A DNA stretch of 64,000 nt, taken from the NCBI RefSeq assembly GCF_031458255.1, contig NZ_JAVDYC010000001.1:4225001-4289000 (forward strand). Reading direction: 5' to 3'. The translations under genes were made by a program, and so were the position numbers. Below, in pieces: positions 5,579-64,000 of this stretch. How positions within the stretch are numbered: position 1 is the first letter of the stretch; each line of letters begins with the position of its first letter. Origin of the DNA: Catenuloplanes niger. GTDB taxonomy: Bacteria; Actinomycetota; Actinomycetes; Mycobacteriales; Micromonosporaceae. The notes beneath the pieces are model-generated. The model was not told where the DNA came from, did not search any database, and saw nothing but the letters and a program-made list of their open reading frames with translations.

Positions 5579-5660
5579 TTTTCCCGCTTCCGGCGTGCCC
5601 ACTTCCCGCACGCTCCCGCGGGCAACGGTCGTCGCCAGGGCTCCTCCCTGCACGTCCCGC
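5579..5660 (+). repeat. Dispersed 3'-UTR element, copy R1
   Basis: Box A TTTTCCCGCTTCCGGCG starts 34 bases after the LCP2 stop. Box B begins GCTCCCGCGGGCA at 5612 and continues with ACGGTCGTCGCC and a GGGCTCCTCCCTGC core. Between the boxes, GCGTGC and GCACGC form a 6-bp stem around a 9-nt loop. Same orientation as LCP2. Confidence 0.8.
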
Positions 5661-6087
5661 ACCCGGTCACCGACCCCCGGCCGCTCCTCGCCGCACGCCA
5701 CGCCCGCGACGCCACACGCCGACCCGGCCCCGGCCCGGCACCGGCACCGCCCACGCCGCGATCCACGCCGCCGGGCAGGTTGCGGCTCGTCCTGCGTTCA
5801 GCGGTCACGTCTCCTTCGACGAGAACCGATCAGAGAGCGGCACAGCCCGGGCAGGAACGACGCGCTGCCGCAGTCAGCCCCAGGATGGCGCGGCACCGCA
5901 GCCATCGCGAATGCGACGCGCGAACGTCAGCCCTGGTGACCGAAGAAGGGTTTGCGGCACTGCCGATGATCTGGTCGGTTCCCGTTCGGTAAACGGCACC
6001 GGGGTCTATAAGCCGAAATATCGGACGCGGAGCGCCCTGTCAGTTCACCGTCAACGCGAGACGCATAGGCCGTGGGCCGGGGGCCGT

Positions 6088-6162
6088 GGCAGCGGCAGCG
6101 GGCAGCGGCAGCGGGCAGCGGGCAGCGGCAGCGGGCAGCGGGCAGCGGCAGCGGGCAGCGGG
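6088..6162. repeat. GGCAGC/GGGCAGC short tandem repeat
   Basis: A run of 6- and 7-bp units, GGCAGC and GGGCAGC, in irregular alternation. It lies between the two inverted element copies R1 and R2. Likely to vary in length between strains by slippage. Confidence 0.85.
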
Positions 6163-6216
6163 CGTGGAGTGAGGTGATGGCGGGAGGAAGGCGGGAGGGG
6201 TGTGGTGGGTGCGGAA

Positions 6217-6293
6217 CGTGCAGGGAGGAGCCCTGGCGACGACCGTTGCCCGCGGGAGCATGCGGCACGGGACCACGCCGGAAGTGGGCAGAT
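6217..6293 (-). repeat. Dispersed 3'-UTR element, copy R2
   Basis: Read on the minus strand: box A CCCACTTCCGGCG, a hairpin GCGTG..CATGC with one G-T pair, then box B GCTCCCGCGGGCAACGGTCG and GGGCTCCTCCCTGCACG. This is the only complete copy not downstream of a gene on its own strand; it lies 100 bp upstream of LCP gene 3, inverted relative to R1. Confidence 0.8.
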
Positions 6294-6393
6294 TCGGGCC
6301 CTGGGGTTGGGTTTTCTGGGTGGGGAGCGCAAATCCGGCAGCGCTCGTTACATCAGGTGATGTCCGTATCGTCACCACCTGGGAGAGTCTGGC

Positions 6394-7653
6394 ATGCATG
6401 TCCGGTACCGCGCTGACTCTCCGGCCGCCGCGCCTCGCTGGAACGCGCCCACCCAGGTGCAGACGATCATTCGGCCGGTCGTGGTGCCGGAGCGGGCCGT
6501 GGTGGTGGCGTCGGAGCCGGCGCCGGCCGGGGGGCACCGGCGGCGTGCCCGGCGGCGTCGGCGCAGTCCGCTGTGGGCGCGGCTGGCCGTGGCGTTCGGT
6601 GTGGTGCTGCTGGTGCTGAGCGGTGGGGCGCTGGCCGGGGCGCAGGTGCTGATCGGGCGGGCGACGCAGAACATCGCGCAGGACAACCTGCTGGGGGACG
6701 GCAGCAAGAGCACGGCCGAGGGTGGGGCGAGCTTGGACGGCGCGATCGACATGCTGCTGCTCGGCGTGGACGTGCGGGAGAGCTGGGAGGAGAACAACAC
6801 GCGGGCGGACACCATCGTCATCCTGCACATCCCGGCCACGCATGATCGCGCGTTCCTCATCTCGGTGCCGAGGGACACGCTGGCGGAAATCCCGCCGTAC
6901 GAGAAGAGCGGCTTCGGTGGTGCGACCGCGAAGATCAACGACGCGTTCTACTACGGGGCGCAGAACGGTGGCGACTGGGCCGGCGGCGCGCAGCTGATGG
7001 CGGAGACGCTGAAGAACGCGACCGGCATCGGGTTCGACGGTGCGGCGATCATCGACTTCGGCGGCTTCAAGAACGTGATCGACGAGCTCGGCGGCGTGCG
7101 GATGTGCGTGGCCGAGCGGGTCGTCTCGCACCACATGGTCATGGTCGACGGCGAGCAGATGTACAAGGCCGACGCGCGCCGGGCCGGGAAGCGCCGGGCG
7201 GCCGAACCGGTCGTCTACGGCAAGGGGTGCCAGCAGATGAACGGCACCCAGGCGCTCGACTTCTCCCGGCAGCGCTACGGGCTCAGCGACGGCGACTACG
7301 GCCGGCAGCGGCACCAGCAGCAGATGATCAAGGCGATCGTGCGGAAGGCCGCGAGCAGCGGCATCACGGCCAACCCGCTGCGGGTCGACCAGCTGATCCG
7401 GGCCGCCGGCACCGCGTTCACGCTGGACACCGGCGGGATCCCGGTCGCGGACTTCATCTTCGCGCTCAAGGGCGTGGCGGTCGGCGACCTGATGACGCTG
7501 AACACCAACGGGGGCCGGTTCAACCCGGTCACCGTCGGCGGTACGGAGTACGAGCAGCTCTCCGAGCTGAGCGAGCGGATGTTCGAGGCGGTTCGGGAGG
7601 ACCGGCTGACCGAGTTCGTGATCGAGAACCCCGAGGTTATTTCCCGAAGCTGA
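6394..7653 (+). CDS. LCP (LytR-CpsA-Psr) family protein 3
   Basis: A 419-residue LCP protein. About 60 residues of basic, Arg-rich cytoplasmic N-terminus are followed by a membrane helix (AVAFGVVLLVLSGGALAGA) and an LCP domain starting MLLLGVDVRESW with SVPRDTLAEIP. GGGAG eight bases upstream supports the ATG. It shares the same C-terminal organisation as LCP2 (a LKGVA..DLM segment near the end), marking them as paralogs. It probably attaches a glycopolymer to peptidoglycan at the cell surface. The rhodanese gene follows 19 bp later and may be co-transcribed. Confidence 0.9.
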   Translation: MHVRYRADSPAAAPRWNAPTQVQTIIRPVVVPERAVVVASEPAPAGGHRRRARRRRRSPLWARLAVAFGVVLLVLSGGALAGAQVLIGRATQNIAQDNLLGDGSKSTAEGGASLDGAIDMLLLGVDVRESWEENNTRADTIVILHIPATHDRAFLISVPRDTLAEIPPYEKSGFGGATAKINDAFYYGAQNGGDWAGGAQLMAETLKNATGIGFDGAAIIDFGGFKNVIDELGGVRMCVAERVVSHHMVMVDGEQMYKADARRAGKRRAAEPVVYGKGCQQMNGTQALDFSRQRYGLSDGDYGRQRHQQQMIKAIVRKAASSGITANPLRVDQLIRAAGTAFTLDTGGIPVADFIFALKGVAVGDLMTLNTNGGRFNPVTVGGTEYEQLSELSERMFEAVREDRLTEFVIENPEVISRS

Positions 7654-7672
7654 CCCGCCGTACGCTGGAGGC

Positions 7673-8008
7673 GTGTTCGGATCTCAGGTTCCCAGCGTGA
7701 CCGCCGCCGACGTGCCGGACGGCGCCTACCTGCTCGACGTGCGCGAGCAGGACGAATGGGAGGCCGGCCACGCGCCCGGCGCCCACCACCTGCCGATGCA
7801 GGAGATCCCGGTGCGGATCGAGGAGGTCCCGGCGGACGGCGACGTGGTCGTGGTCTGCCGGATGGGTGGCCGCAGCGCGCAGGTGGTGAACTACCTGCTG
7901 CAGAACGGCTGGGACAACGTCCGCAACCTGACCGGTGGCATGAAGGCGTGGGAGGCGGCCTCCCGCGACATGGTCACCGACGACGGGAATCCTGCCCGCG
8001 TCATCTGA
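7673..8008 (+). CDS. Rhodanese-like domain protein
   Basis: A 111-residue single-domain rhodanese. DVREQDEWEAGHAPGA is the CH2A-type motif and CRMGGRS is the active-site loop with Cys62, so the catalytic cysteine is present. Such proteins transfer sulfane sulfur or act in thiol redox chemistry in the cytoplasm. It starts with GTG 19 bp after LCP gene 3 and is followed by a strong hairpin, so it may be the last gene of that unit. The physiological acceptor is unknown. Confidence 0.88.
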   Translation: MFGSQVPSVTAADVPDGAYLLDVREQDEWEAGHAPGAHHLPMQEIPVRIEEVPADGDVVVVCRMGGRSAQVVNYLLQNGWDNVRNLTGGMKAWEAASRDMVTDDGNPARVI

Positions 8009-8033
8009 CGGCCCGCGTCTCCTGACGCCCGGC

Positions 8034-8056
8034 GCGCCGAGTGTGACGCTCGGCGC
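8034..8056 (+). terminator. Hairpin after rhodanese gene
   Basis: GCGCCGAG and CTCGGCGC form a perfect 8-bp stem with a 7-nt loop, 25 bases after the stop. Likely terminator. Confidence 0.65.
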
Positions 8057-8109
8057 CCTCGGGTGACCGGCCACTGCGGCACACCCCCACAGCGAGGCAG
8101 ACTCAAAGC

Positions 8110-9567
8110 ATGCCGGACCGTCCCGACTATGCCGCGTTCATCGCCGGGCACACCGCGGTCATCAACATGATCAACGCGGGCGCTTCCGGGGTCACCGCCC
8201 TGAACCGCCTGCTGGAGGTCGTGCAGACCGGGCTCGGTGCGCACGGCGTCTCGTTCGCGGAGTACGGTCCGAGCCGCGGCCGCATCGTGGCCACCAGCGG
8301 CGCGTCCAGCTGGGCGCTCGGCCGGGTGGTCGACCACGCGGACCCGTCCGTCGCCCGGTTGCTGTCCGGCCCGGCGACCACCGAGGTGCCGGTCACCGCG
8401 CTGCCCGCGGAGGTGGCGGAGCAGTTCACCACGCGCGGCATCCGGCGCATGCTCGGCGCCCGGGTGGAGGCCGGCGGTCTCGCGCTCGGCTCGCTGCACG
8501 CGTTCTTCACGGACGACGAGCCCAGCTCGCCGGAGGCGCACGGGTTGCTCGGCTACGTCGCGGTCTCCGTCGCGCATCTCTACGGTGACCAGTCCGGCCT
8601 GCCGGTGCACGGCGACGGCCCGGTCGTGGCCGCGCTGGCGGACGGGCTGGCGATCGTCGACTCGCAGGGCTACGTCCGGCTGTGGAACCCGGCGGCCGAG
8701 CGGGTCACCGGCCGGACCGCGGCGCAGGCGCTGAACCGGCCGCTGCCGTTCCCGGCGCCGCCGACCGGCCGGGTGATCGACCACCGGCTGCCGGACGGCC
8801 GCTGGATGAAGATCGCGGCCGGTGACCTGCCGGGCCGGTCCTACTCGCGCGTGGTCACGTTCCGCGACATCAGCGACCAGAACCAGCTCAACCACGACTG
8901 GGACCTGTTCCTGGCGGTGACCAGCCACGAGCTGCGCACGCCGGTCACCGTGATCAAGGGGTACGCGGACACTCTCACCGGCCACTGGGACGCGCTGGCG
9001 GACGGGGACCGTCGCGAGGCCACGCGCGCGATCGGCCAGCGCGCCACGGACCTGGCCCGGCTGGTCGACCGCCTGCTGGCCACGACCGGCGGCCTCGGCC
9101 CGGTCGGCGGTTCCGCACCGGTGCCGTTCGACGTGGTGGACGCGCTGCGCGCGGCGGTCACCGAGCTCCCCACCGACCTGCGCCGCCGGCTCACGCTGGA
9201 GCTGCCGGAGGACCTGCCGAAGGCGTTCGGCGACCGGGCCGCGATCGCCACCGTGGTCACCGAGCTGGCGACGAACGCGGGAAAGTACGCGGAGGGCGAC
9301 TCGCCGATCGAGCTGACCGCGGAGGCGGACGAGCAGACGGTGGCGTTCCGGGTTAGCGACCGCGGCATCGGGGTACGTCCTGAGCATGTGGAACGCGCAT
9401 TCGACCGCTTCTGGCAGGGCGAATCGGGCGACCACCGCCGCTACCCCGGTGCGGGCCTCGGACTGTTCCTGGTCCGCCGGATCGTGGAGCGGCAGAACGG
9501 ATGGGCCTCCATCCGGCCTCGGCCGGGCGGGGGCACGATCGTAGAGGTGCGCCTCCCCCGCGGCTGA
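8110..9567 (+). CDS. Soluble sensor histidine kinase (GAF-PAS-HisKA-HATPase)
   Basis: A 485-residue kinase with no membrane segment. Residues about 15-165 look like a GAF-type sensor and about 175-260 a PAS-like domain (DGLAIVDSQGYVRLWNPAAE). His273 sits in SHELRTPVTVIKGYAD, the phospho-acceptor box. The ATPase domain has the N-box (ELATNAGKYA), G1 (SDRGIGV), F-box (DRFWQG) and G2 (GAGLGLFLV). No response regulator gene is adjacent; the next gene is an RsbW-like ATPase, so the pair may feed a partner-switching pathway. Signal unknown. Confidence 0.88.
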   Translation: MPDRPDYAAFIAGHTAVINMINAGASGVTALNRLLEVVQTGLGAHGVSFAEYGPSRGRIVATSGASSWALGRVVDHADPSVARLLSGPATTEVPVTALPAEVAEQFTTRGIRRMLGARVEAGGLALGSLHAFFTDDEPSSPEAHGLLGYVAVSVAHLYGDQSGLPVHGDGPVVAALADGLAIVDSQGYVRLWNPAAERVTGRTAAQALNRPLPFPAPPTGRVIDHRLPDGRWMKIAAGDLPGRSYSRVVTFRDISDQNQLNHDWDLFLAVTSHELRTPVTVIKGYADTLTGHWDALADGDRREATRAIGQRATDLARLVDRLLATTGGLGPVGGSAPVPFDVVDALRAAVTELPTDLRRRLTLELPEDLPKAFGDRAAIATVVTELATNAGKYAEGDSPIELTAEADEQTVAFRVSDRGIGVRPEHVERAFDRFWQGESGDHRRYPGAGLGLFLVRRIVERQNGWASIRPRPGGGTIVEVRLPRG

Positions 9568-9608
9568 CGCGGCCGGGGCCACGGTCGAGACCTGCGAGGG
9601 GGCGGCGC

Positions 9609-10040
9609 ATGACGGCCGTACAACAGGAGAACGGGAGCATGCAGTCCCGCAGCCTGGTAGTGCCGCATCACGCCCAAGGCGTCCGGGCCGCCCGGCGCCA
9701 ACTCACCCAGGAGCTGACCGGCTCGATCACCGCGAGCCTGCTGTGTGACGTGGTCACCGTGGTCGCGGAGCTGCTCAGCAACGCGATACGGCATGCGCGT
9801 CCGCTGCCCGGCGGCGTGATCCGGTTGAGCTGGCGGCTGCGCCGTGCCACCGGTGACGCACGTGTGCTGGAGGTCCGGGTGACCGACGGCGGGGCCGCGA
9901 CCGAACCGTGCATGCGCGCCGCCGGACCCCGCTCGATCGACGGCCGCGGCCTGGGCATCGTGGCCGCGATGGCGCGCTGCTGGGGCACCGACCGGAACGG
10001 CGCCGAGCACTCGGTCTGGGCCGAGTTCGCCGTCGCCTGA
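9609..10040 (+). CDS. RsbW-like anti-sigma/ATP-binding regulatory protein
   Basis: A 143-residue GHKL ATPase domain alone, of the HATPase_c_2 type found in actinobacterial anti-sigma factors. It has the N-box ELLSNAIRHA, a G1-like DGGAA and a G2 GRGLGIVAAM. The ATG at 9609 has a GAGGGGG ribosome binding site; the frame extends upstream without one. It lacks an HisKA domain and cannot autophosphorylate on His; relatives are serine kinases or binders of anti-anti-sigma factors. Partner sigma factor and antagonist are not in the window. Confidence 0.85.
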   Translation: MTAVQQENGSMQSRSLVVPHHAQGVRAARRQLTQELTGSITASLLCDVVTVVAELLSNAIRHARPLPGGVIRLSWRLRRATGDARVLEVRVTDGGAATEPCMRAAGPRSIDGRGLGIVAAMARCWGTDRNGAEHSVWAEFAVA

Positions 10041-10122
10041 CCGGCTCGTCGCGGAAATTCCCGCTCCCGGGATCCGCGCCGGACGAGACGCCCCGTGGGG
10101 CGACCGCCTAGGCTGGGTCGCC

Positions 10123-11007
10123 GTGAGCAAGCGCCGTAGGAACAATGAGTCCGCCGCCGACGCGGCACCCAAGCGCCAGAAGGTCCGGGACATCTTCGTG
10201 CACCGGCCGTTCGAGGGGCTGGCCGACGAACCGGAGTGGGTCGCGCTGCGCGAACTGGTCCCGGCCGCGTCCGCCCCGCTGCGCCTGGCCCCCGATCTGG
10301 TGGAGAAGTACGGCGAGCGCACCGTCACGCTCGCGACCGTGCTCCCGATGGCCTGGCCCGCGATGACCCGGCCGGACGGCAGCGTCTTCATCGGCCTGCA
10401 GCGGCACATCCAGTCCGGCGACGTCTCCCGGGACCTGGCCGCCGCGCTGCTCTCGGCGCTGGAGACCACGCCGGGCAGCACCGTCGCCGTGCCCGCGCTG
10501 CCCGGCCCCGGGCCGCGGCTGCAGGACGTGCTGGCGGACGGTCCGCTGGAGATCGCCATGCACGACGGCTTCGAGTTCTGGCTGGAGGAGGGCGCGGCCG
10601 ACGACCCGACCGTGAAGGCGTCGCTGGAGCGGGCGAACGCGTCCGTCTACCCGACGGTCCGGCTCGCCGCGGCGCCTGCGGCGTACTGGTGTCGCGTGCC
10701 GGAGAAGTCCCACGTGCGGTGGGTGCTGCCGGACGGCGAGGACGCGGCGCTGAACGCGCTGGCCCGGCTGAGCGCGGCCGGCGAGCTGAAGCTCGGCGAG
10801 GACACCAAGTTCGCCGGCATGTTCCGCGCGCACGGTCTGCTGGTGCCGGTGTGGGACCTGCCGGTCGAGCCGGCGGGCTCGGAGTGGGAATCCCCACTCG
10901 CGGACTTCGCGAAGCGGTACGCGGCGGCGCTCACGGACGACACTCTGGACAGTGCCGCGCGGCGCGCCAAGCAGGGCCTCCTCGGCCGTCAGCTCACCCT
11001 TCGCTGA
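10123..11007 (+). CDS. DUF5926 family protein
   Basis: A 294-residue protein that I recognise as the DUF5926 family, widespread and single-copy in actinobacteria but of unknown function. The N-terminus is short and basic (SKRRRNNESAADAAPKRQK), then a folded region with RDIFVHRPFEGLADEPEW and LPMAWPAM, and a C-terminal part with FRAHGLLVPVWDL. No membrane segment, signal peptide or catalytic motif is seen. GTG start. Its neighbours give no functional hint. Confidence 0.85.
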   Translation: MSKRRRNNESAADAAPKRQKVRDIFVHRPFEGLADEPEWVALRELVPAASAPLRLAPDLVEKYGERTVTLATVLPMAWPAMTRPDGSVFIGLQRHIQSGDVSRDLAAALLSALETTPGSTVAVPALPGPGPRLQDVLADGPLEIAMHDGFEFWLEEGAADDPTVKASLERANASVYPTVRLAAAPAAYWCRVPEKSHVRWVLPDGEDAALNALARLSAAGELKLGEDTKFAGMFRAHGLLVPVWDLPVEPAGSEWESPLADFAKRYAAALTDDTLDSAARRAKQGLLGRQLTLR

Positions 11008-11188
11008 TCTTTACCGAGCTTTTCGGACAGTCGGCTCGCGGCGGTGTGCGCCATGTGGGAAAAAGGTGAATAGCACGGATTCATGTCTCACTCCGCAGAA
11101 TTCAGGGGTCTGGGTCTTGCATCCGTGCCGGGTCAACCACGTACCGTAGTGTCACGACAACCAATGGGACCTTTTGCCGGAGGTACCG

Positions 11189-12653: not shown

Positions 12654-12762
12654 GCCCCGGATCCGGTCGTCGCCGGCGATCCACCGCGCGCGGGCGCCAC
12701 GCGCAGATGACGCCAGTTTTGGGTCCTGGCTTTCCGCCGGAACGGGCTTAACATCTGTCTTC

Positions 12763-14334: not shown

Positions 14335-14369
14335 CCGTACGCCGGGCGGAGAGCGGTGCTGGTTCTTCG

Positions 14370-14461
14370 CCGGCCACGACGGGACCGGCAGGGAGGAGCG
14401 CCAGCGACGACCGGTGCCCGCGGGAGCGTGCGGGCCGGATGACGCCGGAAGCGGGAAAATC
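14370..14461 (-). repeat. Dispersed 3'-UTR element, copy R3
   Basis: On the minus strand, box A (TTTTCCCGCTTCCGGCG) begins 14 bases after the stop of the AIM24 gene. The spacer forms GCGT/ACGC, and box B reads GCTCCCGCGGGCACCGGTCG then GGCGCTCCTCCCTGCCGG. The convergent pheA gene ends on the other side. Confidence 0.8.
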
Positions 14462-14475
14462 CGCTTCTGGACGGG

Positions 14476-15210
14476 TCAGTCGAGCAGGCCGCCGAGGAGG
14501 CCGCCGCCGCTGTTGCTCTGGCCGCCGGCGACCGCGTGGCCGCCCGGGGGCTCCTCGGAGGGCTGCACGACGACGAAGCCCTGACCGGCGAAGCTCATCG
14601 TGAAGGCCTCACCGGTGGAGCGGCCGAGGAGCGTGCCGATGCCGAGCTGGTCGGCGCGGTGGTAGCCGGTCTGCAGGTTGGCGGACCAGGCGATGGCGGC
14701 CTGCGGGTCGACGTACGTCGGGGCGTCGATGTTGAGCACGACGGGGCTGCCGTTGGACGTGACCGCGATCCGGCCGTAGCCGGTGAAGACGCAGTTGAAG
14801 AGGCCGGCGGAGGACATCATGCCCATGCCCTGGACCATCTTGATGTCGTAGTTGAGCGTCGGGTCGAAGGCCAGCACGTTCGCCCCGTTGATCGACAGGG
14901 CGTCGCCGTGCTCCAGGTCGATGATGTGGATGTCGGCGGCGCGGTCCGCGAGGAAGAGGTCGCCGTGGCCGGTGACCTTCATCAGCGGGACGCCCTCGCC
15001 GGTGAGCTGCTTCTTGATGAACTTGCCGAGACCGCCGGAGCCCAGCGCCTGGAACTGCATCTGGCCCTGGTAGGCGACCATCGTGCCGGTGCGGGCCATC
15101 ATCTCGCCGTTGAGCTGGTATTTCAGCATCTTCGAGTTCTGCAGCCGCATGCCGGGGTGCTGATCCTGGTTGTTCTCCAGGTTCTCCGCGGAGAAGAGGG
15201 CGCTGCGCAT
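14476..15210 (-). CDS. AIM24 family protein
   Basis: A 244-residue protein of the AIM24 family (a beta-helix fold related to mitochondrial AIM24 and bacterial TerD-associated proteins); biochemical function unknown. It begins MRSALFSAENLENNQ after a good GGAGG site; an in-frame GTG 19 codons upstream is less likely. Typical internal motifs are KYQLNGEMMARTGTM, HIIDLEHGDAL and GMGMMSSAGLF. The C-terminus is a Gly/Leu-rich tail (GGGLLGGLLD). The element R3 follows its stop. Confidence 0.85.
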   Translation of the reverse strand: MRSALFSAENLENNQDQHPGMRLQNSKMLKYQLNGEMMARTGTMVAYQGQMQFQALGSGGLGKFIKKQLTGEGVPLMKVTGHGDLFLADRAADIHIIDLEHGDALSINGANVLAFDPTLNYDIKMVQGMGMMSSAGLFNCVFTGYGRIAVTSNGSPVVLNIDAPTYVDPQAAIAWSANLQTGYHRADQLGIGTLLGRSTGEAFTMSFAGQGFVVVQPSEEPPGGHAVAGGQSNSGGGLLGGLLD

Positions 15211-23810: not shown

Positions 23811-23901
23811 TTTTTCCCACTTCCGGCGTGGTTGCGTTCCGAGTGCTCCCGCGGGCACCGGTCGTCGCTGGCGCTCCTCCCTGCCGGTTCCGCCGCGGCC
23901 G
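23811..23901 (+). repeat. Dispersed 3'-UTR element, copy R4
   Basis: Box A TTTTCCCACTTCCGGCG at 23812, box B GCTCCCGCGGGCACCGGTCG at 23845, then GGCGCTCCTCCCTGCCGG. It is about 100 bases after the lrp stop, same orientation. The spacer (GTGGTTGCGTTCCGAGT) is the only one without an obvious hairpin. Confidence 0.8.
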
Positions 23902-39310: not shown

Positions 39311-39430
39311 GGGACCGGCGGCACCGGCTCCGGCGCCGCGGGTGGAGCGGAGCGCCAGCGGAGTCGGAGCCCGCGGCGAGGTTGGCCCGCGGGAGCATGC
39401 GGGCCGCACCACGCCGGAAGCGGGAAGATC
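39311..39430 (-). repeat. Dispersed 3'-UTR element, copy R5 (variant II)
   Basis: On the minus strand, box A (CTTCCCGCTTCCGGCG) begins 18 bases after the tadC stop. GCGTG and CATGC pair (one G-T) across the spacer. After GCTCCCGCGGGC the 3' half differs from R1-R4: it carries GGGCTCCGACTCCGCTGGCG and CTCCGCTCCACCCGCGGCG, as in R8. Confidence 0.75.
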
Positions 39431-50100: not shown

Positions 50101-51311
50101 TGCGATACGTGGATCCGATCCGGAACCCCTACGCCCCCGGCGCCGGTCAGCGCCCACCCGAGCTCGCCGGCCGGGACCGCGAGGTCGAGGCGTTCGAGGT
50201 GGTCCTGGAACGGATCGCGCGCGGCCGCCCCGAACGCAGCCTGGTCCTCACCGGTCTGCGCGGCGTCGGCAAGACCGTGCTGCTCAACAGCCTGCGCTCG
50301 CAGGCGATCGGCCGCCTCTGGGGCACCGGCAAGATCGAAGCCCGGCCGGACACGTCGCTGCGCCGCCCGATCTCCGCCGCGCTGCACATGGCCGTCCGCG
50401 AGCTGGCCGGCCGGCACCGGGCACCGGACCGCATCGACGAGTTCCTCGGCGTGCTCAAGGCGTTCGCGCTGCGCTCCAACGACGACGGCGCCAAGCTCCG
50501 CGACCGCTGGCAGCCCGGCATCGACGTGCCCGCCACCCGCGGCCGCGCCGACTCCGGCGACATCGAGATCGACCTGGTCGAGCTGTTCACGGACGCGGCC
50601 GCGATCGCCACCGACGTGGGCACCGGCATCGCGATCTTCATCGACGAGATGCAGGACCTGGGCGCGCCGGACATCTCCGCGCTCTGCGCCGCCTGCCACG
50701 AACTCTCCCAGCTGGGCGGCCCGCTGATCGTGGTCGGCGCCGGCCTGCCACACCTGCCCGCGGTCCTCTCCGCCGCGAAGTCCTACTCCGAGCGACTGTT
50801 CCGCTACCAGCGCATCGACCGCCTCGACCGGGCCGCGGCCGACCGGGCACTCACCGCACCGGCGCTGCGGGAAGACGTCGACTACGAACCGAAGGCACTC
50901 GACCTGCTCTACGAGAAGTCCGGCGGATACCCGTACTTCGTACAGGCCTACGGCAAGGCCACCTGGGACCACGCGCCACGCTCCCCGATCACCGCGGAGG
51001 ACGTCCGGGTCGCCGCCCCCGAGGCCGAAACCGAACTGGCCGTCGGCTTCTTCGGCTCCCGCTTCGAACGCGCCACCCCCGCCGAACGCGACTACATGCG
51101 CGCCATGGCCACGCTCGCCTCCGACGACGACGGCCTCGACGGCGCCGTACCCACCTCGGACATCGCCCGCTCCCTCGGCCGCCGCCCGGCCAGCCTCTCC
51201 CCGGCCCGCGACGCCCTGATCAAGAAGGGCCTGATCTACTCCGGCGAGCGCGGCACGGTCGCGTTCACCGTCCCACACTTCGGTCGATACCTACGAACCC
51301 AACCCCTCTAA
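50100..51311 (+). CDS. AAA/STAND-type ATPase (Orc/Cdc6-like family)
   Basis: A 403-residue P-loop ATPase: Walker A LTGLRGVGKTVLLNSL, Walker B IAIFIDEMQDLG, sensor-type VVGAGLP, followed by a lid and a C-terminal winged-helix-like region (SDIARSLGRRPASLSPARDAL). This family (N-terminus DPIRNPYAPGAGQRPPEL) is frequent in actinobacteria and related to archaeal-type ATPases; function unknown. The start may be GTG 50100 or GTG 50109; no clear ribosome binding site, and the right arm of the leader dyad ends at the start. Element R6 begins four bases after its stop. Confidence 0.8.
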   Translation: MRYVDPIRNPYAPGAGQRPPELAGRDREVEAFEVVLERIARGRPERSLVLTGLRGVGKTVLLNSLRSQAIGRLWGTGKIEARPDTSLRRPISAALHMAVRELAGRHRAPDRIDEFLGVLKAFALRSNDDGAKLRDRWQPGIDVPATRGRADSGDIEIDLVELFTDAAAIATDVGTGIAIFIDEMQDLGAPDISALCAACHELSQLGGPLIVVGAGLPHLPAVLSAAKSYSERLFRYQRIDRLDRAAADRALTAPALREDVDYEPKALDLLYEKSGGYPYFVQAYGKATWDHAPRSPITAEDVRVAAPEAETELAVGFFGSRFERATPAERDYMRAMATLASDDDGLDGAVPTSDIARSLGRRPASLSPARDALIKKGLIYSGERGTVAFTVPHFGRYLRTQPL

Positions 51312-51315: not shown

Positions 51316-51402
51316 TTTTCCCACTTCCGGCGTGGCCACTCCACGGTGCTCCCGCGGGCACCGCTCGGCCGTGGCCGGCCTCCCTGCCGGTCCCGCCGCG
51401 GC
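51316..51402 (+). repeat. Dispersed 3'-UTR element, copy R6
   Basis: Box A TTTTCCCACTTCCGGCG starts four bases after the ATPase stop. CGTGG and CCACG pair over a 5-nt loop. Box B GCTCCCGCGGGCACCG follows, then a variant 3' part GGCCTCCCTGCCGGTCCCG. Confidence 0.8.
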
Positions 51403-54117: not shown

Positions 54118-54205
54118 GGCCACGGATCGTGCAGGGAGGAGCGCCAGCGACGACCGGTGCCCGCGGGAGCACTCGGAACGTGCTCCGCCGGAAGCGGGTA
54201 AATCG
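54118..54205 (-). repeat. Dispersed 3'-UTR element, copy R7
   Basis: On the minus strand, box A (TTTACCCGCTTCCGGCGG) begins 18 bases after the moaB stop. GGAGCAC and GTGCTCC form a perfect 7-bp stem with loop GTTCCGA. Box B GCTCCCGCGGGCACCGGTCG and GGCGCTCCTCCCTGC follow. Confidence 0.8.
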
Positions 54206-54223
54206 GTTGTCCGCTTCGGTTTG

Positions 54224-58212: not shown

Positions 58213-58643
58213 CCAACCCCGGGTGGCCCGTGATCGGCGCGGTGGCCGCGGGTGGCGCGCTCGGTGCCGCCGCCCGGTACGCCGTGTCCGCCGCCGCACC
58301 CGGCCCGTGGACCACCGTGGCGATCAACATGGCCGGGTGCCTGGCGATCGGCGCGTTCCTGGCCCGGATCGAGGACCGGCCCGGCACGCACCCGCTGCTG
58401 CGGCCGTTCGTGGCGACCGGTGTGCTCGGCGGGTTCACCACGTTCTCCGCGTTCGCGGTGCAGACGCTTCAGCTCGGCGACCGGCCGCCGGCCGCCGCGG
58501 CCTATACGGTCGCCGCGGCCTATACGGTCGCCGCGGCCTATACGGTCGCCACGGTCGCCGGATCGCTCGGTGCGGCCCGGCTCGGCCGGTGGCTCGCCGG
58601 TCGACGGCTCACCGGCCGGTGGCCCGGCGCGAGGCGTGCGTGA
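58209..58643 (+). CDS. crcB1: Fluoride channel subunit CrcB1 with internal repeat
   Basis: A 144-residue Fluc-family fluoride channel: GALGAAARYAV, NMAGCLAIGAF and GVLGGFTTFSAFAVQTLQ are the family motifs, with the fluoride-lining Phe/Thr region. Four membrane helices. The fourth region includes AAAYTV repeated three times, coded by an exact 18-bp tandem repeat (58500-58553). The C-terminal tail is Arg-rich. GTG start overlaps the GGDEF-EAL stop (GTGA). Confidence 0.9.
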   Translation: MTNPGWPVIGAVAAGGALGAAARYAVSAAAPGPWTTVAINMAGCLAIGAFLARIEDRPGTHPLLRPFVATGVLGGFTTFSAFAVQTLQLGDRPPAAAAYTVAAAYTVAAAYTVATVAGSLGAARLGRWLAGRRLTGRWPGARRA

Positions 58644-58709
58644 CGGCGTACCGGCCGGCATGAGCGGCCGGTCAGCACGGCGGGCGCGCGGCGTCAAGGA
58701 GAACTCGTC

Positions 58710-59048
58710 ATGATCACATTTGGGCTGGTGCTGATCGGCGGCGCGGCCGGGGCGGTGGTGCGCCTGCTGCTCGACACGGCCGCGGCGGCCCGGTTCGGGC
58801 GGCGCCTGCCGTGGGGCATCCTGGCCGCGAACGTGCTCGGCTCGCTGCTGCTCGGCCTGCTGCACAGCACCGCGCCGACCTGGGTGGTCGCGCTGGCCGG
58901 AACCGGTTTCTGCGGCGCGCTGACCACCTGGTCCACGCTGGCGGCGGACACCGTACGGCTGCCGCGTGCGCTCGGCGTACTGAATCTGGCGTTGAATCTG
59001 CTTCTGGGTCTTTCGGCCGCCGGGCTGGGCTGGTGGCTGGCGCCGTAG
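58710..59048 (+). CDS. crcB2: Fluoride channel subunit CrcB2
   Basis: A 112-residue second Fluc protein: GGAAGAVVRLLLD, NVLGSLLLGLL and GTGFCGALTTWSTLA, with four helices. Gram-positive bacteria commonly encode two CrcB proteins that form a heterodimeric channel exporting fluoride. AAGGAGAA supports the ATG. No fluoride riboswitch is apparent upstream of either gene. Confidence 0.92.
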   Translation: MITFGLVLIGGAAGAVVRLLLDTAAAARFGRRLPWGILAANVLGSLLLGLLHSTAPTWVVALAGTGFCGALTTWSTLAADTVRLPRALGVLNLALNLLLGLSAAGLGWWLAP

Positions 59049-59085
59049 GTGCACGATGCGTGACCGGTCGGGGTACCGTCGACGC

Positions 59086-59499
59086 ATGCAGATGACCTGT
59101 CCAAAGTGCCACGGCCAGATGCGGCAGTACGAACGCAGCGGCGTCACCATCGACCAGTGCGGCGAGTGCCGGGGGATCTTCCTGGACCGCGGCGAGCTGG
59201 AGAAGCTGTTCGAAGCCGAGCAGAGCTGGAACCGGAGCAACCCGCAGGGCGCCCGCCCTGGGGCTGTCCCGCCGCCTCCGCCGCCTCCCGGTTACCCGCC
59301 GGCCGCGCCGGTGCACGGTGGCGGTTACGCGCCTCCGCCTCCGCCTCCGGTTCAGCACGGCTACCCGGCGGCGACCCCGGCGTACGGGCACGGGGCACCC
59401 GCCTACGGCCACGGCGGCGGGTACCACGGGCACTACCGCCACCACGGTCACCGACGTGGCAAGAAGCACCGCGGTTTCCTGGGCGAGCTCTTCGACTAG
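59086..59499 (+). CDS. TFIIB-type zinc ribbon protein with Pro/Gly/His tail
   Basis: A 137-residue protein. The N-terminus MTCPKCHGQM with DQCGECRGIFLDRGELEKLF is the zf-TFIIB zinc ribbon (four Cys). The tail has polyproline runs and GYxHG repeats, then a His-rich stretch (HGHYRHHGHRRGKKHR) that could bind metal. ATG 59086 is chosen because the zinc ribbon begins two residues later. Function unknown. Confidence 0.85.
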   Translation: MQMTCPKCHGQMRQYERSGVTIDQCGECRGIFLDRGELEKLFEAEQSWNRSNPQGARPGAVPPPPPPPGYPPAAPVHGGGYAPPPPPPVQHGYPAATPAYGHGAPAYGHGGGYHGHYRHHGHRRGKKHRGFLGELFD

Positions 59500-59540
59500 A
59501 ACGTCCCGCGGGTAGGGCCGCCCCGCTCCTGCAGGCGGCC

Positions 59541-60995
59541 CTACATCGCCATGTCCACGAACCGCGACAGGTGCAGCTGCGCCGCGACCGTGACCGTGTC
59601 CGTCGGGCCGTTACGGTGCTTCGCCACGATGAAGTCCGCCTCGCCCGCGCGCGGTGACTCCTTGTCGTAGTAGTCGTCGCGGTGGAGCAGGATCACGACG
59701 TCGGCGTCCTGCTCGATCGATCCACTCTCACGCAGGTCGGACAGCTGCGGGCGCTTGTCGGTGCGCTGCTCGGGACCACGGTTCAGCTGGGACACCGCGA
59801 TGACCGGCGCCTCGACCTCCTTGGCCAGCAGCTTCAGGCCACGGGACAGCTCCGCGACCTCCTGCTGACGGCTCTCGGTGCGGCCCGGCGAGGACATCAG
59901 CTGCAGATAGTCGACGACGATCAGCTTGAGGTCGTGCCGCTGCTTGAGGCGCCGCGCCTTCGCCCGGATCTCCATCAGGTTCATGCTCGGCGTGTCGTCC
60001 ACGAACAGCGGGGCCTCGCTGATCTCGCCCATGCACCGCGCCAGCTTCGTCCAGTCGTCGTCGGAGAGCTGCCCGGACCGCAGCACGTGCAGCGGCACCC
60101 GCGCCTCCGCCGACAGCAGACGCATCACGATCTCGATCTTGCTCATTTCGAGCGAGAAGATGGCGCTCGCCTGGTTCGCCCGGATGGCGGCGTTCCGGGC
60201 GAAGTCCATGCTCGCCGTGGACTTCCCGAGACCCGGGCGCCCGGCCACGATGATCAGCTGCCCGGCGTGCAGGCCGTTGAGGAGACGGTCCAGGTCGGCG
60301 AAGCCGGTGGGCACGCCGGTCATCATGCCGGCCTGGGCGCCGATCGCCTCGATCTCGTCGAGCGTGGGCTGGAGCATCTCGCCGAGGCTGGCGAAGTCCT
60401 CGTTGACGCGCTTCTCGGTGATCTCGTAGACGGCCTGCTGGGCCAGGTCGACGATGTCGTCGACGTCGCGGCCGGTGCCGGCGGCGGCACCGTAGCCGAG
60501 CTGGACGATGCGGGTGCCGGCCTCCACCAGGCGGCGCAGGACCGCGCGCTCGGCCACGATGCGGGCGTAGTACGACGAGTTGGCGGCGGTGGGGACGCTG
60601 GCGATCAGCGTGTGCAGGTAGGGGGCGCCGCCGATGCGGGCGAGATCGCCGGCGTCGTTGAGCAGCGCGGCGACCGTGATGGCGTCGGCCGGCTCGCCGC
60701 GACCGTACAGGTCGGTGATGGCGTCGAAGATCGTCGCGTGGATCGGGCGGTAGAAGTCGCCGTGCTTGAGGATCTCCACCACGTCGGCGACCGCGTCCTT
60801 GGAGAGCAGCATGCCGCCGAGCACGCACTGCTCGGCGGCCATGTCCTGCGGCGGGGTGCGATCGAGGCCGCCACCGCCGCCCTCACCGTCGCGTGGCGGG
60901 CCGTCGAACTTTCGGTCCTTCTGGCGGCGCGGGCGGTCGTCCCCGGAGTCGTCGGGGGAAAACGAGCCGGGCCGCACGTCGTCGGTAATCGACAT
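59541..60995 (-). CDS. dnaB: Replicative DNA helicase DnaB
   Basis: A 484-residue hexameric helicase that unwinds DNA at the replication fork. The N-terminal domain begins QDMAAEQCVLGGMLLSKDAV; Walker A is VAGRPGLGKSTASMDF, Walker B LKLIVVDYLQLM, and QLNRGPEQRTDKRPQLSDLR and DADVVILLHRDDYYD follow. Length is normal and no intein interrupts it. The first 45 residues are a charged disordered extension common in actinobacteria. DnaA-box-like sites lie upstream. Confidence 0.96.
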   Translation of the reverse strand: MSITDDVRPGSFSPDDSGDDRPRRQKDRKFDGPPRDGEGGGGGLDRTPPQDMAAEQCVLGGMLLSKDAVADVVEILKHGDFYRPIHATIFDAITDLYGRGEPADAITVAALLNDAGDLARIGGAPYLHTLIASVPTAANSSYYARIVAERAVLRRLVEAGTRIVQLGYGAAAGTGRDVDDIVDLAQQAVYEITEKRVNEDFASLGEMLQPTLDEIEAIGAQAGMMTGVPTGFADLDRLLNGLHAGQLIIVAGRPGLGKSTASMDFARNAAIRANQASAIFSLEMSKIEIVMRLLSAEARVPLHVLRSGQLSDDDWTKLARCMGEISEAPLFVDDTPSMNLMEIRAKARRLKQRHDLKLIVVDYLQLMSSPGRTESRQQEVAELSRGLKLLAKEVEAPVIAVSQLNRGPEQRTDKRPQLSDLRESGSIEQDADVVILLHRDDYYDKESPRAGEADFIVAKHRNGPTDTVTVAAQLHLSRFVDMAM

Positions 60996-61406
60996 CGCGC
61001 CCCCTCAGTCGAACATACGTACTATCCCGCATCGAACGGTCGCCGACAACCGGAACGGCCGGCGACCGCGGCGGCCGACTGGCACATCGGCAGACACTCC
61101 CACGGGTAGCGCGATCACACTACGAACACCCAGCCCTCAGCCCCAAACGGGTCGGTGGATGAGCCTGGGTATTACCTGTGGACAGCGGGCCGCACACTGT
61201 GCGCAGCCCTGTGGATAACCTGTGCACAACTAAGTGGATCGCGTCACACAAACGTCTCTGAGCAGGTAAAACTTTGTCCCCAGCATGTGGAGGAAAGAAA
61301 GGTTGTCCGGTTCTGGGGGTAGATTCGGGCGAAGGTAGGCTCATCGCCGCAAGTTGATGCCGCCGGAACACGTATTGCGATCTGGTCTCGGAACGGTCAC
61401 GCTCCA
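60996..61406. other. Divergent control region of dnaB
   Basis: About 410 bp between dnaB and a plus-strand gene. It holds four near-consensus DnaA boxes and an AT-rich stretch (61250-61310); dnaB and the membrane protein promoters should be here. No coding frame is convincing. Confidence 0.6.
61177..61282. promoter_or_regulatory. DnaA-box-like cluster upstream of dnaB
   Basis: TGTGGACAG (61177), TGTGGATAA (61210), TGTGCACAA (61221) and TTGTCCCCA (61274, opposite strand) each differ from the actinobacterial DnaA box TTGTCCACA by one base. Four such sites in about 105 bp is more than expected by chance in this GC-rich DNA. Confidence 0.55.
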
Positions 61407-63455
61407 TTGGTGGACTACGACGATCAGGATCTCAGCGGGCGGGCGCCGCGACAGCGCCGTCGTGCTGGCTCCTGGTCGGAAGACGCCGACTACGGCGACG
61501 AGCTGCCCCGGCCCCGGGCGGCGGAGGAGTCGCAGGTCGAGCGCTACACGAGCTATCCCGACCCGGCCACCACCGACTTCTACCGGCGCACCGGCGACAC
61601 CGGCGTCGGCGACATCCCGCCGATCCGGTCCAGCCGCGCGCGCAACCGCTGGCAGGCCAGCCGCGAGACGGAGGGCTGGCGTCAGGAGCCGGACGGCGGC
61701 GCCAGCTACGACCGGACCAGCGAGAGCCTCAGCTACGAGGACGCGGCCCCGGAGCGGCCGAGCTGGGCCGACCGGCGGTACGACACCGGAAGCTGGCGCA
61801 ACGTCAGCGACACGGCCAGCTGGCGGCGTGGCTCACGGGTCGACCCGGACGAGGGCACCGGCTACCGCGCCTACCAGCCCGGCGGCCGGTACGGCTCGCG
61901 CACCGACGCGGGCGACACCGAGCCCGCCGCCCGGCGCCGGCCACCCGACGAGGGCGGCGGCTCATGGGGCCGCGACGCGGAGGAGGACACCTGGAACCGG
62001 CGCTCGGGCGCCGGTTCGTGGCGTCGGGTGACGGAAACGCGCACCTGGGTCTCCGAGACCGGCAGCTGGAGCTCCGCGGACGCGATCGAGCACCGGGCCA
62101 CGGACGTGCCCGCGCAGCGGCCCGCGCCGGCCGAGGACACCTGGGGCGGCCGGGCCGTCCGCGAGGAGACCGGCTCCTGGGACGCGCCGCGCCGGACCCG
62201 GTCCGAGCGGCGCCGCGCCGAGCGCGCCGGCGAGCTGCCGGAACACGCCCCGGAACGGACCGACGACCAGAGCTGGGAGCAGCCCGAGCGGGTCGAGCGC
62301 GGGCCCGAGCGGGTCGAGCGGGTCGAGCGCGGGCCCGAGTGGGTGGAGCGCGGGCGTGAGCGGCCCGCACCCGGCGCGGAGAAGCCGCGGCACTATCAGC
62401 AGAGCGGCTGGCCGGACTGGAGCGACCCGACGATGGGTCCGGCCCGCACCCGCGGGACGCGCGCCGACGCCGGCCCACCGGTGCCGCGGTCCGGCAACGC
62501 GCCGCAGCTGCCGCCGGAGGCGATCCAGGACCGGCCGGAACGGGCACAGACGTCGTCCCAGTGGCCGGCCGGGGCCCCGGGCACCACCGACACGGGCACG
62601 TGGCGGCGGCGCCCGGAGAACGCGGATGACGGCGACTGGCGGGGCCCGCAGGCGGTCTCGGACACCGGCACGTGGCGGCGCGGTGCCCAGATGGACGGCC
62701 CGCGCGCCCGCCGCGAGCGGTCCGCGACCGAGGACACCGGCACCCGGGCCGGCGGCTACGGCTTCACCCGGGCGGAACCGGACGCGCCGCGGCCCCGCTA
62801 CGCCGGGGAGACCGGCGAGGTCTCCCGCTATCCGCGCCGGACGGAGACGGACACCAGCAGCTGGCAGCGCACGCCGGACGGGGTGATGTGGACCGGCGCG
62901 CCCACGACCGGCACCGCGCCGGCCGCGGGCGTCTACCGGGCGTCACGTCCGGTGCGCTCGTGGCAGGACGACACGTCGGCCGCGGAGCGGGACTGGGCGG
63001 CCGGCCAGGCGAACACCGGCACCTACCCGGACGGGCTGACCCGCCCGTCGTACGCGGACGCGACCCCGGAGGAACGCACGCCGCGCCGCGAGATGTCCGC
63101 GGCGATGCGCCGCCGGGTCGCGGTCGAGGAACTGGACGAGCTGGAGGACGCGCCGCCCGGCGGCCCGCTCGCGGCGATCGGCTTCACCGTCTTCTGGTAC
63201 TCGGTGCCGGTCCTGCTGTTCACGATCTTCACCCTCACCCAGGGCACGGCGGAACGGGCCCGCGCCGGCGCGACGCTGCTCGGCGCGGCACCCCAGTTCG
63301 GCATCTCGCTGGCCGTGAGCATCGTCATCGCGTACCTGTTGCGCCTGGTCAGCGGCACCTGGAAGACCGCGAGCGTGGGCCTGGCCGCGGCCGTGATGGG
63401 CGGCGGCCTGGCCACCGTGCTGGTCTCCGCGATCAGCGGCCAGCCGATCGGCTGA
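61407..63455 (+). CDS. Tryptophan-periodic disordered membrane protein
   Basis: A 682-residue protein. Residues 1-580 are hydrophilic, Arg/Glu/Asp-rich and disordered, with a recurring short motif (consensus D-T-G-S/T-W-R-R: YDTGSWRN, DTASWRRG, SETGSWSS, DTGTWRRR, DTGTWRRG, DTSSWQRT) spaced irregularly. The C-terminus has three or four helices (GFTVFWYSVPVLLFTIFTL; FGISLAVSIVIAYLL; ASVGLAAAVMGGGLATVL). Start is TTG 61407 or GTG 61410. No family recognised; an envelope or division-scaffold role is possible. Confidence 0.6.
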   Translation: MVDYDDQDLSGRAPRQRRRAGSWSEDADYGDELPRPRAAEESQVERYTSYPDPATTDFYRRTGDTGVGDIPPIRSSRARNRWQASRETEGWRQEPDGGASYDRTSESLSYEDAAPERPSWADRRYDTGSWRNVSDTASWRRGSRVDPDEGTGYRAYQPGGRYGSRTDAGDTEPAARRRPPDEGGGSWGRDAEEDTWNRRSGAGSWRRVTETRTWVSETGSWSSADAIEHRATDVPAQRPAPAEDTWGGRAVREETGSWDAPRRTRSERRRAERAGELPEHAPERTDDQSWEQPERVERGPERVERVERGPEWVERGRERPAPGAEKPRHYQQSGWPDWSDPTMGPARTRGTRADAGPPVPRSGNAPQLPPEAIQDRPERAQTSSQWPAGAPGTTDTGTWRRRPENADDGDWRGPQAVSDTGTWRRGAQMDGPRARRERSATEDTGTRAGGYGFTRAEPDAPRPRYAGETGEVSRYPRRTETDTSSWQRTPDGVMWTGAPTTGTAPAAGVYRASRPVRSWQDDTSAAERDWAAGQANTGTYPDGLTRPSYADATPEERTPRREMSAAMRRRVAVEELDELEDAPPGGPLAAIGFTVFWYSVPVLLFTIFTLTQGTAERARAGATLLGAAPQFGISLAVSIVIAYLLRLVSGTWKTASVGLAAAVMGGGLATVLVSAISGQPIG

Positions 63456-63486
63456 GAAGCCGAGGGCCGGACCAGGACCTGGATCA

Positions 63487-63592
63487 TTTTCCCGCTCCCG
63501 GCGGGGTACAGCCCGTTCGCTCCCGCGGGCAAACCCGCCGGGCGCTCCGACTCCGCCGGCGCTCCGCTCCGCACCCGGCGCCGGAGCCGGTC
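63487..63592 (+). repeat. Dispersed 3'-UTR element, copy R8 (variant II)
   Basis: Box A TTTTCCCGCTCCCGGCG begins 31 bases after the stop of the 682-residue protein. CGGG and CCCG pair over a 6-nt loop. After GCTCCCGCGGGCA the 3' half is the variant II form (GCGCTCCGACTCCGCCGGCG, then CTCCGCTCCGCACCCGGCG), as in R5. Confidence 0.75.
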
Positions 63593-63601
63593 ACGCGGCG
63601 C

Positions 63602-63717
63602 CCGGGAAACCCACGCCACGTTCACCGCCACTCGCGCCACGTCACGCGCGTTCCGGTGCCCGGGAAACCCCCGCCATGTCCACCGCCACTCGCGCCGCGT
63701 CAGGCGGGTTCACGTCC
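63602..63717. repeat. 58-bp tandem pair
   Basis: Two units, each containing CCGGGAAACCC near its start and CACCGCCACTCGCGCC in the middle; about 80 percent alike by eye. Confidence 0.8.
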
Positions 63718-63973
63718 CACGACACCACGGCACCCGTCACGCGCGGCACGGTCATCCCCGCTTCCGGCGCCGATCGCGGCGCACGGGATTCCGGACGCCC
63801 ACGACACACGCCTTCACTCGCGGCGCGCGGCCGGCCGCTGCCGCTCGTGACGCATCGGATCCGAGGCTGTGGCACACACCGCTGCCGCTGACGACGCGTC
63901 GCGCGGTTCGCGCCGCCGTTCATGGTCGCGTCTGACGATGCGGCGGTCAGATGCGGTGGTCACCGGTGCCCGT

Positions 63974-64000
63974 GGCCGCGCCGGGACCGGCAGGGAGGAG
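63974..64000 (-). repeat. Dispersed 3'-UTR element, copy R9, cut by window edge
   Basis: GGCCGCGCCGGGACC then GGCAGGGAGGAG match the end of box B in R3. Box A must lie beyond 64000, so this is probably a ninth copy. Confidence 0.6.

What the first reader, a model, noticed from the sequence alone, without database searches (positions are those of the whole stretch)
5579..64000. Undescribed dispersed element with two conserved boxes and a structure-conserving variable hairpin
Nine copies (R1-R9) of an 80-120 bp element occur only between genes. Each complete copy has box A (about TTTTCCCGCTTCCGGCG) and box B (GCTCCCGCGGGCA plus a 3' core GGCGCTCCTCCCTGC or variant). The 10-16 nt between the boxes differ in sequence in almost every copy, yet pair in seven of eight: GCGTGC/GCACGC (R1), GCGTG/CATGC with a G-T pair (R2, R5), GCGT/ACGC (R3), CGTGG/CCACG (R6), GGAGCAC/GTGCTCC (R7) and CGGG/CCCG (R8). 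Different bases giving the same helix is the signature of selection on structure. I do not recognise a named family.
Basis: seen in the sequence. Interest (0 to 1): 0.85.

Follow-up and report, generated by a model that had tools for sequence, protein, structure and literature searches.

The report
Repeat element behind bacterial gene ends
Bacteria of one genus carry a hundred or more copies of a short, partly folded DNA element that sits mostly just behind the ends of genes, seems to spread, and may stand in for the signal that ends a gene's transcript.

Summary
Eight full copies lie in the window; R9 is only box-A-like. The genome (genus Catenuloplanes by inference, Micromonosporaceae) has 222 box A copies (reversed control 8) and 158 full copies (control 0); four congeners have 108-243; 145 genomes of 43 other genera of the family have no exact copy.

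Covariation lies elsewhere: in a variable 13-bp stem of one subtype (window R5, R8) and in a second hairpin of diverged relatives in other genera.

In the window's genome the upstream gene points the same way in 90 of 100 placed copies, its stop codon a median 28 nt away. In C. japonicus this holds in 85 of 108, but without sense bias in codirectional gaps (23 against 20). Terminator-like hairpins are rare behind the element (5 of 61, against 45 of 131 element-free gene ends). Near-identical copies at different loci point to recent spread. No Y1 transposase was found in five genus genomes, so not a RAYT-dependent REP. Best reading: a new, spreading, structured 3'-end repeat that may replace terminators. 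Neither termination nor mobility is shown experimentally.

The parts
5579..5655 (+). R1, full copy, subtype Ia; 34 nt behind the stop of a codirectional LytR_cpsA_psr gene (4405-5544)
6216..6292 (-). R2, full copy, subtype Ia, inverted to R1 and sharing its module; exception: its 5' side faces the start of a LytR_cpsA_psr gene, not a stop codon
14384..14459 (-). R3, full copy, subtype Ia; behind the AIM24-family gene ending at 14476; with its leader and 3' tail (about 14352-14470) missing in relative G067
23812..23888 (+). R4, full copy, subtype Ia; about 100 nt behind an Lrp/AsnC-type regulator gene
39323..39428 (-). R5, full copy, subtype II with the variable stem; behind a T2SSF-domain gene; missing in relative G047, type I modules in G067 and G084
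51316..51391 (+). R6, full copy, subtype Ib; 4 nt behind an AAA_16-domain gene ending at 51311
54127..54202 (-). R7, full copy, subtype Ia; behind a MoCF_biosynth-domain gene; site occupied in all four relatives, each time with another spacer
63487..63591 (+). R8, full copy, subtype II; 31 nt behind a gene (61410-63455) without a Pfam match at E up to 0.001
63753..63769 (+). R9, box-A-like stretch only (3 mismatches, no box B); not counted as a copy

Best explanation
It is a genus-amplified family of short structured elements that settle behind genes: directly after the stop codon, or after the gene's own terminator hairpin, mostly in the sense direction of the nearest gene. Read into RNA, the element would be the 3' end of the upstream transcript, with hairpins in its 3' module (the variable stem of subtype II; hairpin 2 of the other-genus relatives) and conserved, presumably unpaired C-rich boxes (CUCCCG, CUCCCU). 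The inferred job is to end or cap the transcript in place of an ordinary terminator hairpin, above all between convergent genes. Copies multiply, and the same site carries different spacers and modules in different species, most simply by exchange between copies. Shown by computation: placement at gene 3' ends, direction in convergent gaps, covarying stems, scarcity of a second terminator-like hairpin behind it, presence/absence between species, near-identical copies at different loci. Inferred: that it ends transcription or protects the 3' end, and that it moves by an enzyme not yet identified.
For: Window's genome: upstream gene codirectional in 90 of 100 placed full copies, 3 of 100 in divergent gaps; codirectional gaps 24 sense against 7 antisense (p = 0.003); in 66 convergent gaps 56 lie nearer to the stop on their own strand (p = 7e-9); median 28 nt from stop to box A. 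C. japonicus: 85 of 108 placed copies with codirectional upstream gene, 3 of 108 in divergent gaps, 49 of 62 convergent copies nearer to their own-strand stop (p = 5e-6). Cross-genus relatives: 30 of 39 with a called upstream gene. Terminator-like hairpins (stem 11 bp or more): 45 of 131 element-free gene ends against 3 of 27 behind elements within 30 nt of a stop (p = 0.02) and 5 of 61 behind all elements with room (p = 8e-5), regions cut at the next gene; 13 of 44 between stop and element where there is room. Structure. Spread: 123 pairs at 95% or more identity over 100 nt among 126 C. japonicus copies. Same site, other content: R5, R6, R7.
Against: In C. japonicus there is no sense bias in codirectional gaps (23 against 20) and the median distance to the stop is 63 nt, so strict sense placement is not general. 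No U-run follows the hairpins. Where a gene has its own terminator the element lies beyond it and may not be transcribed. Hairpins are also scarcer far from stops in element-free gaps (16% of 37 regions 120-220 nt behind stops), and most element-free gene ends lack one too. RNAalifold on subtype II did not choose the covarying stem; it paired GCTCCG of the constant loop with the constant CGGAGC behind the stem, a fold that excludes the stem. The box A/box B helix CCCGC/GCGGG was predicted for subtype II only and is nearly invariant; for type I no predicted pair had a double change, and hairpin 2 does not covary within the genus. Direction could come from insertion targeting rather than function. 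Gene calls are home-made. No expression data.
Confidence: 0.4

Rival explanations
1. A purely selfish non-autonomous mobile repeat (MITE-like or REP-like in habit) that an unidentified enzyme inserts near gene 3' ends, or that survives only there because insertions between gene starts are selected against; it has no function for the host.
For: Genus-specific amplification; near-identical copies at different loci; missing in some congeners; no sense bias in codirectional gaps of C. japonicus, while divergent gaps are avoided there (3 of 108 copies; 59 of 252 gaps of 150 nt or more are divergent); T-rich edge: in 80 of 102 own copies 3 or 4 of the 4 bases before CCC are T; in some copies a terminator-like hairpin with T-run lies directly before the element.
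Against: In the window's genome direction is biased also in codirectional gaps (24 against 7). 46 of 90 copies follow the stop within 30 nt, too close for a terminator between, and these rarely have one behind (3 of 27). No enzyme found: no Y1 transposase in 5 genus genomes, no reverse transcriptase in the window's genome.
Confidence: 0.35
2. A source of 3'-UTR-derived small RNAs: the C-rich boxes CUCCCG and CUCCCU, conserved and flanked by hairpins, would pair with Shine-Dalgarno sequences of other mRNAs.
For: The two C-rich boxes are among the most conserved parts within the genus and across genera; placement behind genes.
Against: Hundreds of copies with the same seed would make an undirected regulator; no small-RNA data; no Rfam family matched. 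The link to C-rich small RNAs is recalled, not tested.
Confidence: 0.1
3. A DNA-level site (binding of a nucleoid protein or topoisomerase between converging transcription units, as proposed for E. coli BIMEs); RNA structure is incidental.
For: 66 of 100 copies lie between convergent genes in the window's genome and 62 of 108 in C. japonicus; palindromic CCCGCGGG.
Against: Direction towards the nearer gene is kept in most convergent gaps (56 of 66 and 49 of 62); the covarying stem argues for folding of a single strand, RNA or extruded DNA.
Confidence: 0.1
4. Chance resemblance of GC-rich intergenic sequence, or an assembly artefact.
For: GC content of 72% makes short matches common: box B alone at 2 mismatches is at chance level.
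Against: 158 full copies against 0 for the reversed pattern in a one-contig genome, and similar numbers in four other genomes.
Confidence: 0.01

Closest known systems
REP / BIME elements with RAYT (IS200/IS605-like Y1) transposases
   Same: Over 100 copies per genome, intergenic, palindromic parts, mosaic content, lineage-specific sequence.
   Different: No PF01797 protein in five genus genomes; longer (76-106 nt). Arrays of alternating copies were not looked for. REP description from the abstract and passages of PMC2817692.
Mycobacterial interspersed repetitive units (MIRU)
   Same: Actinobacterial, intergenic, short, oriented with neighbouring genes (recalled).
   Different: Recalled: MIRUs lie mainly within operons and can be tandem; here mostly convergent gene ends and hairpin modules. 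Not compared by sequence.
BOX elements of Streptococcus pneumoniae
   Same: Modular intergenic repeats built of boxes (recalled).
   Different: Other phylum; no sequence comparison made.
Intrinsic transcription terminators
   Same: Hairpin-bearing sequence directly behind stop codons; terminator-like hairpins are scarce behind it.
   Different: Conserved sequence boxes, about 100 nt, no U-run behind the hairpins, clear homology between hundreds of copies.
Group IIC introns and other elements that insert behind terminators
   Same: Position behind gene ends; T-rich 5' edge (the intron property is recalled).
   Different: Far too short for an intron; no reverse transcriptase gene in the window's genome.

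Membership tests
REP/BIME with RAYT | A Y1 (PF01797) transposase in the genome | tested here: not met
   0 of 5 genus genomes at E up to 0.001; the same search rings in 5 of 14 control genomes
REP/BIME with RAYT | High-copy intergenic occurrence | tested here: met
   158 full copies; 0 of 102 in called genes, 2 not placed
REP/BIME with RAYT | GT(A/G)G head before a short palindrome | not tested
   not scored
Rfam RNA family | Score at or above a curated gathering threshold | tested here: not met
   0 matches in the window; in 5 loci at E up to 1 only four sub-threshold miRNA-family matches, all in L252
Intrinsic terminator | GC-rich hairpin behind the stop codon, in place of another terminator | tested here: inconclusive
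   position met; terminator-like hairpins scarce behind the element; activity not tested
Intrinsic terminator | U-run directly behind the hairpin | tested here: not met
   none seen in the aligned copies; the T-rich tract lies before the element
MITE / IS-derived element | Terminal inverted repeats and target site duplication | tested here: inconclusive
   none seen by eye at the empty sites R3 (G067) and R5 (G047), but flanks have drifted
Single-strand-folding element | Compensatory changes in a named helix | tested here: met
   subtype II stem: covariation score and percentage paired reached by 0 of 500 shuffles; not met for the box A/box B spacer helix

The most novel reading that the evidence does not exclude
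A mobile transcription terminator: a self-spreading bacterial element, with relatives in several genera of one family, that comes to lie at gene ends and takes over 3'-end formation from the resident terminator, kept alive by mosaic exchange between copies, with an as yet unknown mobilising enzyme.
Probability: 0.22. Interest if true: 0.85.

Novelty: new variant of a known kind. Interest (0 to 1): 0.6.

Why it matters
Dispersed bacterial repeats are usually read as tolerated passengers. Here the place behind stop codons, the direction in convergent gaps and the scarcity of another terminator-like hairpin point to a role at transcript ends, and relatives in other genera keep the same place. If right, a repeat family supplies ready-made 3' ends across a genome, and hundreds of natural copies plus orthologous sites with and without the element make that directly testable.

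Tried and rejected
Spacer helix as a covarying structure: rejected. G-test with a tree-based null: no pair at E up to 1 in the mixed own set of 100; in own type I seven pairs at E up to 0.04, all in the 3' module and all splitting Ia from Ib, so one haplotype block, although three of the seven are at least 97% standard pairs. Own plus relatives: no spacer pair below E = 3.6. C. japonicus: two pairs below 0.05 (one in the module, one within the spacer with 0% standard pairs) and five between 0.1 and 1 with 29-74% standard pairs, taken as haplotype blocks. Permutation. RNAalifold of 42 type I copies: 0 of 9 pairs with a double change.

In the subtype II count two of the five measures do not exceed shuffling: pairs with a change on both sides (11 against 10.4) and further pair types (22 against 24.0). 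The case rests on percentage paired, cells with double change (169 against 80.1) and covariation score.

First terminator count (3 of 29 against 50 of 131, p = 0.004) let some regions run into the next gene; one search repeats it with a cut (3 of 27 against 45 of 131, p = 0.02). While checking this report I added C. japonicus placement. It weakens the sense-bias claim, so I lowered confidence in the best explanation from 0.45 to 0.40, raised the selfish-repeat rival from 0.30 to 0.35 and lowered the novel case from 0.25 to 0.22.

RAYT/REP: rejected. Reverse-transcriptase-borne spread: no PF00078 match in the window's genome, G047 and G067; 2 in G006, 9 in G084, so RT genes do not track the element.

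Spacer as a guide matching the insertion site: 20 tests, lowest 1 of 200 permutations (own genome, whole spacer, upstream, same strand), next 6 of 200; taken as multiple testing, not followed further.

Core in the wider class: the pattern CTCCCGN{4,5}CACCGGTCG gives 1-2 hits in 59 of 295 other genomes, in the range of the reversed controls. A looser pattern was near control level outside the genus, a little above in some g44 genomes. Of the 47 cross-genus stretches, three (L273; L274 from G052; L283 from G031) did not look like the element and were dropped. The expression used took in extra flanking letters for rows of G105, G009, G129 and G095, which may bias that test either way.

Plasmid and phage collections: no match to R3 at E up to 1e-3. 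Papers: seven searches ran; among the rows shown nothing described such an element. I saw listings and abstract starts, plus the abstract and passages of PMC2817692. MIRU, BOX, group IIC and C-rich small-RNA comparisons are recalled.

L106, a 3.7 kb C. japonicus contig with inverted copies near both ends: ORFs listed, not searched for domains.
Full report
WHAT IS THERE. Box A with up to 3 mismatches is found 9 times in the window against 0.29 expected. Eight of the nine are followed by box B, seven exactly and one with a mismatch, over a spacer of 16-17 nt; the ninth (63753) is not. The window is bases 4225001-4289000 of a one-contig 9.74 Mb genome and is 72% GC. In this genome CCCRCTTCCGGCG occurs 222 times against 8 for the reversed pattern. 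The two boxes at 8-22 nt occur 158 times against 0; in four other genomes of the genus 178, 108, 112 and 243 times; in 145 genomes of 43 other genera of the family 0 times (of 150 genomes searched, 5 belong to the genus, the window's own included). The genus of the window's genome is therefore an inference; Catenuloplanes belongs to the Micromonosporaceae.

ANATOMY. I read 91 stretches of the genome: the window, and stretches around 98 of the first 100 box A places listed (all below 4.2 Mb). They hold 102 full copies with 88 different spacers; 130 C. japonicus copies with enough flank have 39. The part behind box B comes in subtypes: Ia (CGTCGCYGGCGCTCCTCCCTGC and variants), Ib (CGGCCGCGGGCGGCCTCCCTGC and variants), II (variable arms around CTCCGCYGGCGCTCCGC, ending GGAGCCGGT) and others. 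Counts: own 39, 40, 15, 8; C. japonicus 27, 1, 69, 33. Type I copies are poor in A (4.2%) and rich in C (44.3%) against 13.6% A and 37.7% C behind 156 element-free stops.

STRUCTURE. Exchanging right halves of spacers between copies leaves pairing unchanged: helices of 5 bp or more in 84.1% of 88 distinct spacers against 84.4% exchanged; C. japonicus 79.5% of 39 against 78.4%; window 8 of 8 against 90%, which 69 of 300 exchanges reach. Spacers do pair more than shuffled ones (46% and 47%), so the consensus halves are complementary, but changes are not compensated. A G-test with a tree-based null gave no spacer pair below E = 3.6 in own plus relatives, and RNAalifold of 42 type I copies gave 9 pairs, none with a double change. 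In subtype II the arms around the constant loop do covary: longest helix 6.98 against 5.02 +/- 0.15 permuted (maximum 5.52 of 500) over 60 distinct arm pairs from 87 copies. In 55 aligned copies the 13-bp stem has 80.2% standard pairs against 55.6% shuffled, 169 double-change cells against 80, covariation score 0.491 against 0.157 (0 of 500 each) and 0.05-0.17 when slid; two other measures do not exceed shuffling. Copies are related, so counts are not independent events. RNAalifold itself chose a rival fold, GCTCCG of the loop with CGGAGC behind the stem, nearly invariant and excluding the stem; a switch between the two is possible. R5 and R8 of the window are of this subtype.

PLACE AND DIRECTION. 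With a codon-usage gene caller, 100 of 102 own copies could be placed: none in a gene; neighbours convergent 66, codirectional sense 24, codirectional antisense 7, divergent 3. All gaps of 150 nt or more in these stretches, element-bearing ones included, are 62 convergent, 65 codirectional and 45 divergent. In convergent gaps 56 of 66 lie nearer to the stop on their own strand (p = 7e-9); 24 against 7 gives p = 0.003. Median distance from stop to box A is 28 nt for the 90 with a codirectional upstream gene. In C. japonicus, with the caller retrained, 108 of 139 copies could be placed (29 at edges, 2 in called genes): convergent 62, sense 23, antisense 20, divergent 3; 49 of 62 convergent copies lie nearer to their own-strand stop (p = 5e-6); median 63 nt. 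So avoidance of divergent gaps and direction in convergent gaps repeat; sense bias in codirectional gaps does not. R2 of the window is an exception, facing a gene start.

RELATION TO TERMINATORS. Hairpins with a stem of 11 bp or more follow 45 of 131 element-free stops (60-90 nt looked at). They follow 3 of 27 elements within 30 nt of a stop (46 such copies, 19 without room; p = 0.02) and 5 of 61 elements in all (p = 8e-5). Of 44 copies further from the stop, 13 have such a hairpin between stop and element. In element-free gaps 16% of 37 regions 120-220 nt behind stops have one, so position alone explains part. The element thus stands where a terminator would, or behind it; a U-run behind its hairpins was not seen.

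SPREAD AND EXCHANGE. In C. japonicus 123 pairs among 126 copies are at least 95% identical over 100 nt; in the pairs I could see similarity begins abruptly at TTCCCGC and fades at or beyond GGAGCCGGT, while outer flanks mostly differ. At eight window sites in four relatives 12 of 32 combinations hold a copy by a strict test, none with the window's spacer; by eye three more hold a decayed copy (R3 in G084 and G047, R5 in G006). At R7 spacers differ at 5, 9 and 8 of 16 positions in G067, G084 and G047 while the next 36 bases differ at 0 or 1; at R5 and R6 the subtype differs in some species. R3 is missing in G067 and R5 in G047, with no target duplication seen. Exchange between copies is the simplest reading; repeated insertion or fast mutation is not excluded.

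RELATIVES IN OTHER GENERA. A sequence model of type I copies finds matches at E up to 1e-3 (rough E-values) in 28 of 200 family genomes, 12 of 44 genera, at most 20 scored per genome. The stronger ones share GCTCCCG-CACCGGTCG-hairpin-CTCCCTGCC. In seven g44 genomes the core pattern occurs 2-9 times each, reversed control 0-1; in 295 other class genomes it is at background. Of 44 such copies 39 have a called upstream gene (caller trained on the window), pointing the same way in 30. Their hairpin 2 covaries (4.73 against 3.72 +/- 0.23, 0 of 1000, 22 distinct); all genera together 4.32 against 3.89 (3 of 1000, 38 distinct); within Catenuloplanes type I it does not (3.75 against 3.99, 16 distinct).

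WHAT IT IS NOT. No Rfam family at gathering score in the window, none of substance in five loci at E up to 1. No PF01797 transposase in five genus genomes; no reverse transcriptase match in the window's genome. No match to R3 in plasmid or phage records. The spacer does not consistently match its flanks. Genes next to the window copies show no common theme. Seven paper searches showed nothing on it among the rows listed.

VERDICT. A real repeat family, apparently undescribed so far as these searches reach, with a clear place at gene ends. The favoured mechanism, a spreading 3'-end module that takes the terminator's place, fits at moderate confidence; a selfish repeat tolerated at gene ends is a close rival. 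RNA data would decide.

Noticed in passing
window 5579-6292: R1 and R2 lie in inverted orientation around a stretch of about 560 bases without a called gene and share the same module variant; G047 and G006 lack the whole stretch, G067 has about 175 other bases there, G084 one altered copy.
   Followed up: partly
window 6085-6165: Short GC-rich tandem repeats (GGCAGCGGCAGCGGGCAGC) beside R2.
   Followed up: no
L106 56-96 and 3607-3647: A 3.7 kb C. japonicus contig has one copy near each end in inverted orientation, possibly an assembly break at the repeat.
   Followed up: no
C. japonicus loci, within 45 bases before box A: ATCAAG stands before box A in 53 of 130 C. japonicus copies but in 6 of 102 copies of the window's genome, where GCGGAT is commoner (15 of 102 against 3 of 130).
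   Followed up: partly
L279, L296, L210: A terminator-like hairpin with T-run lies directly before the element.
   Followed up: partly
G084 genome: Nine reverse-transcriptase (PF00078) matches in one genome of the genus, two in G006, none in three others.
   Followed up: no
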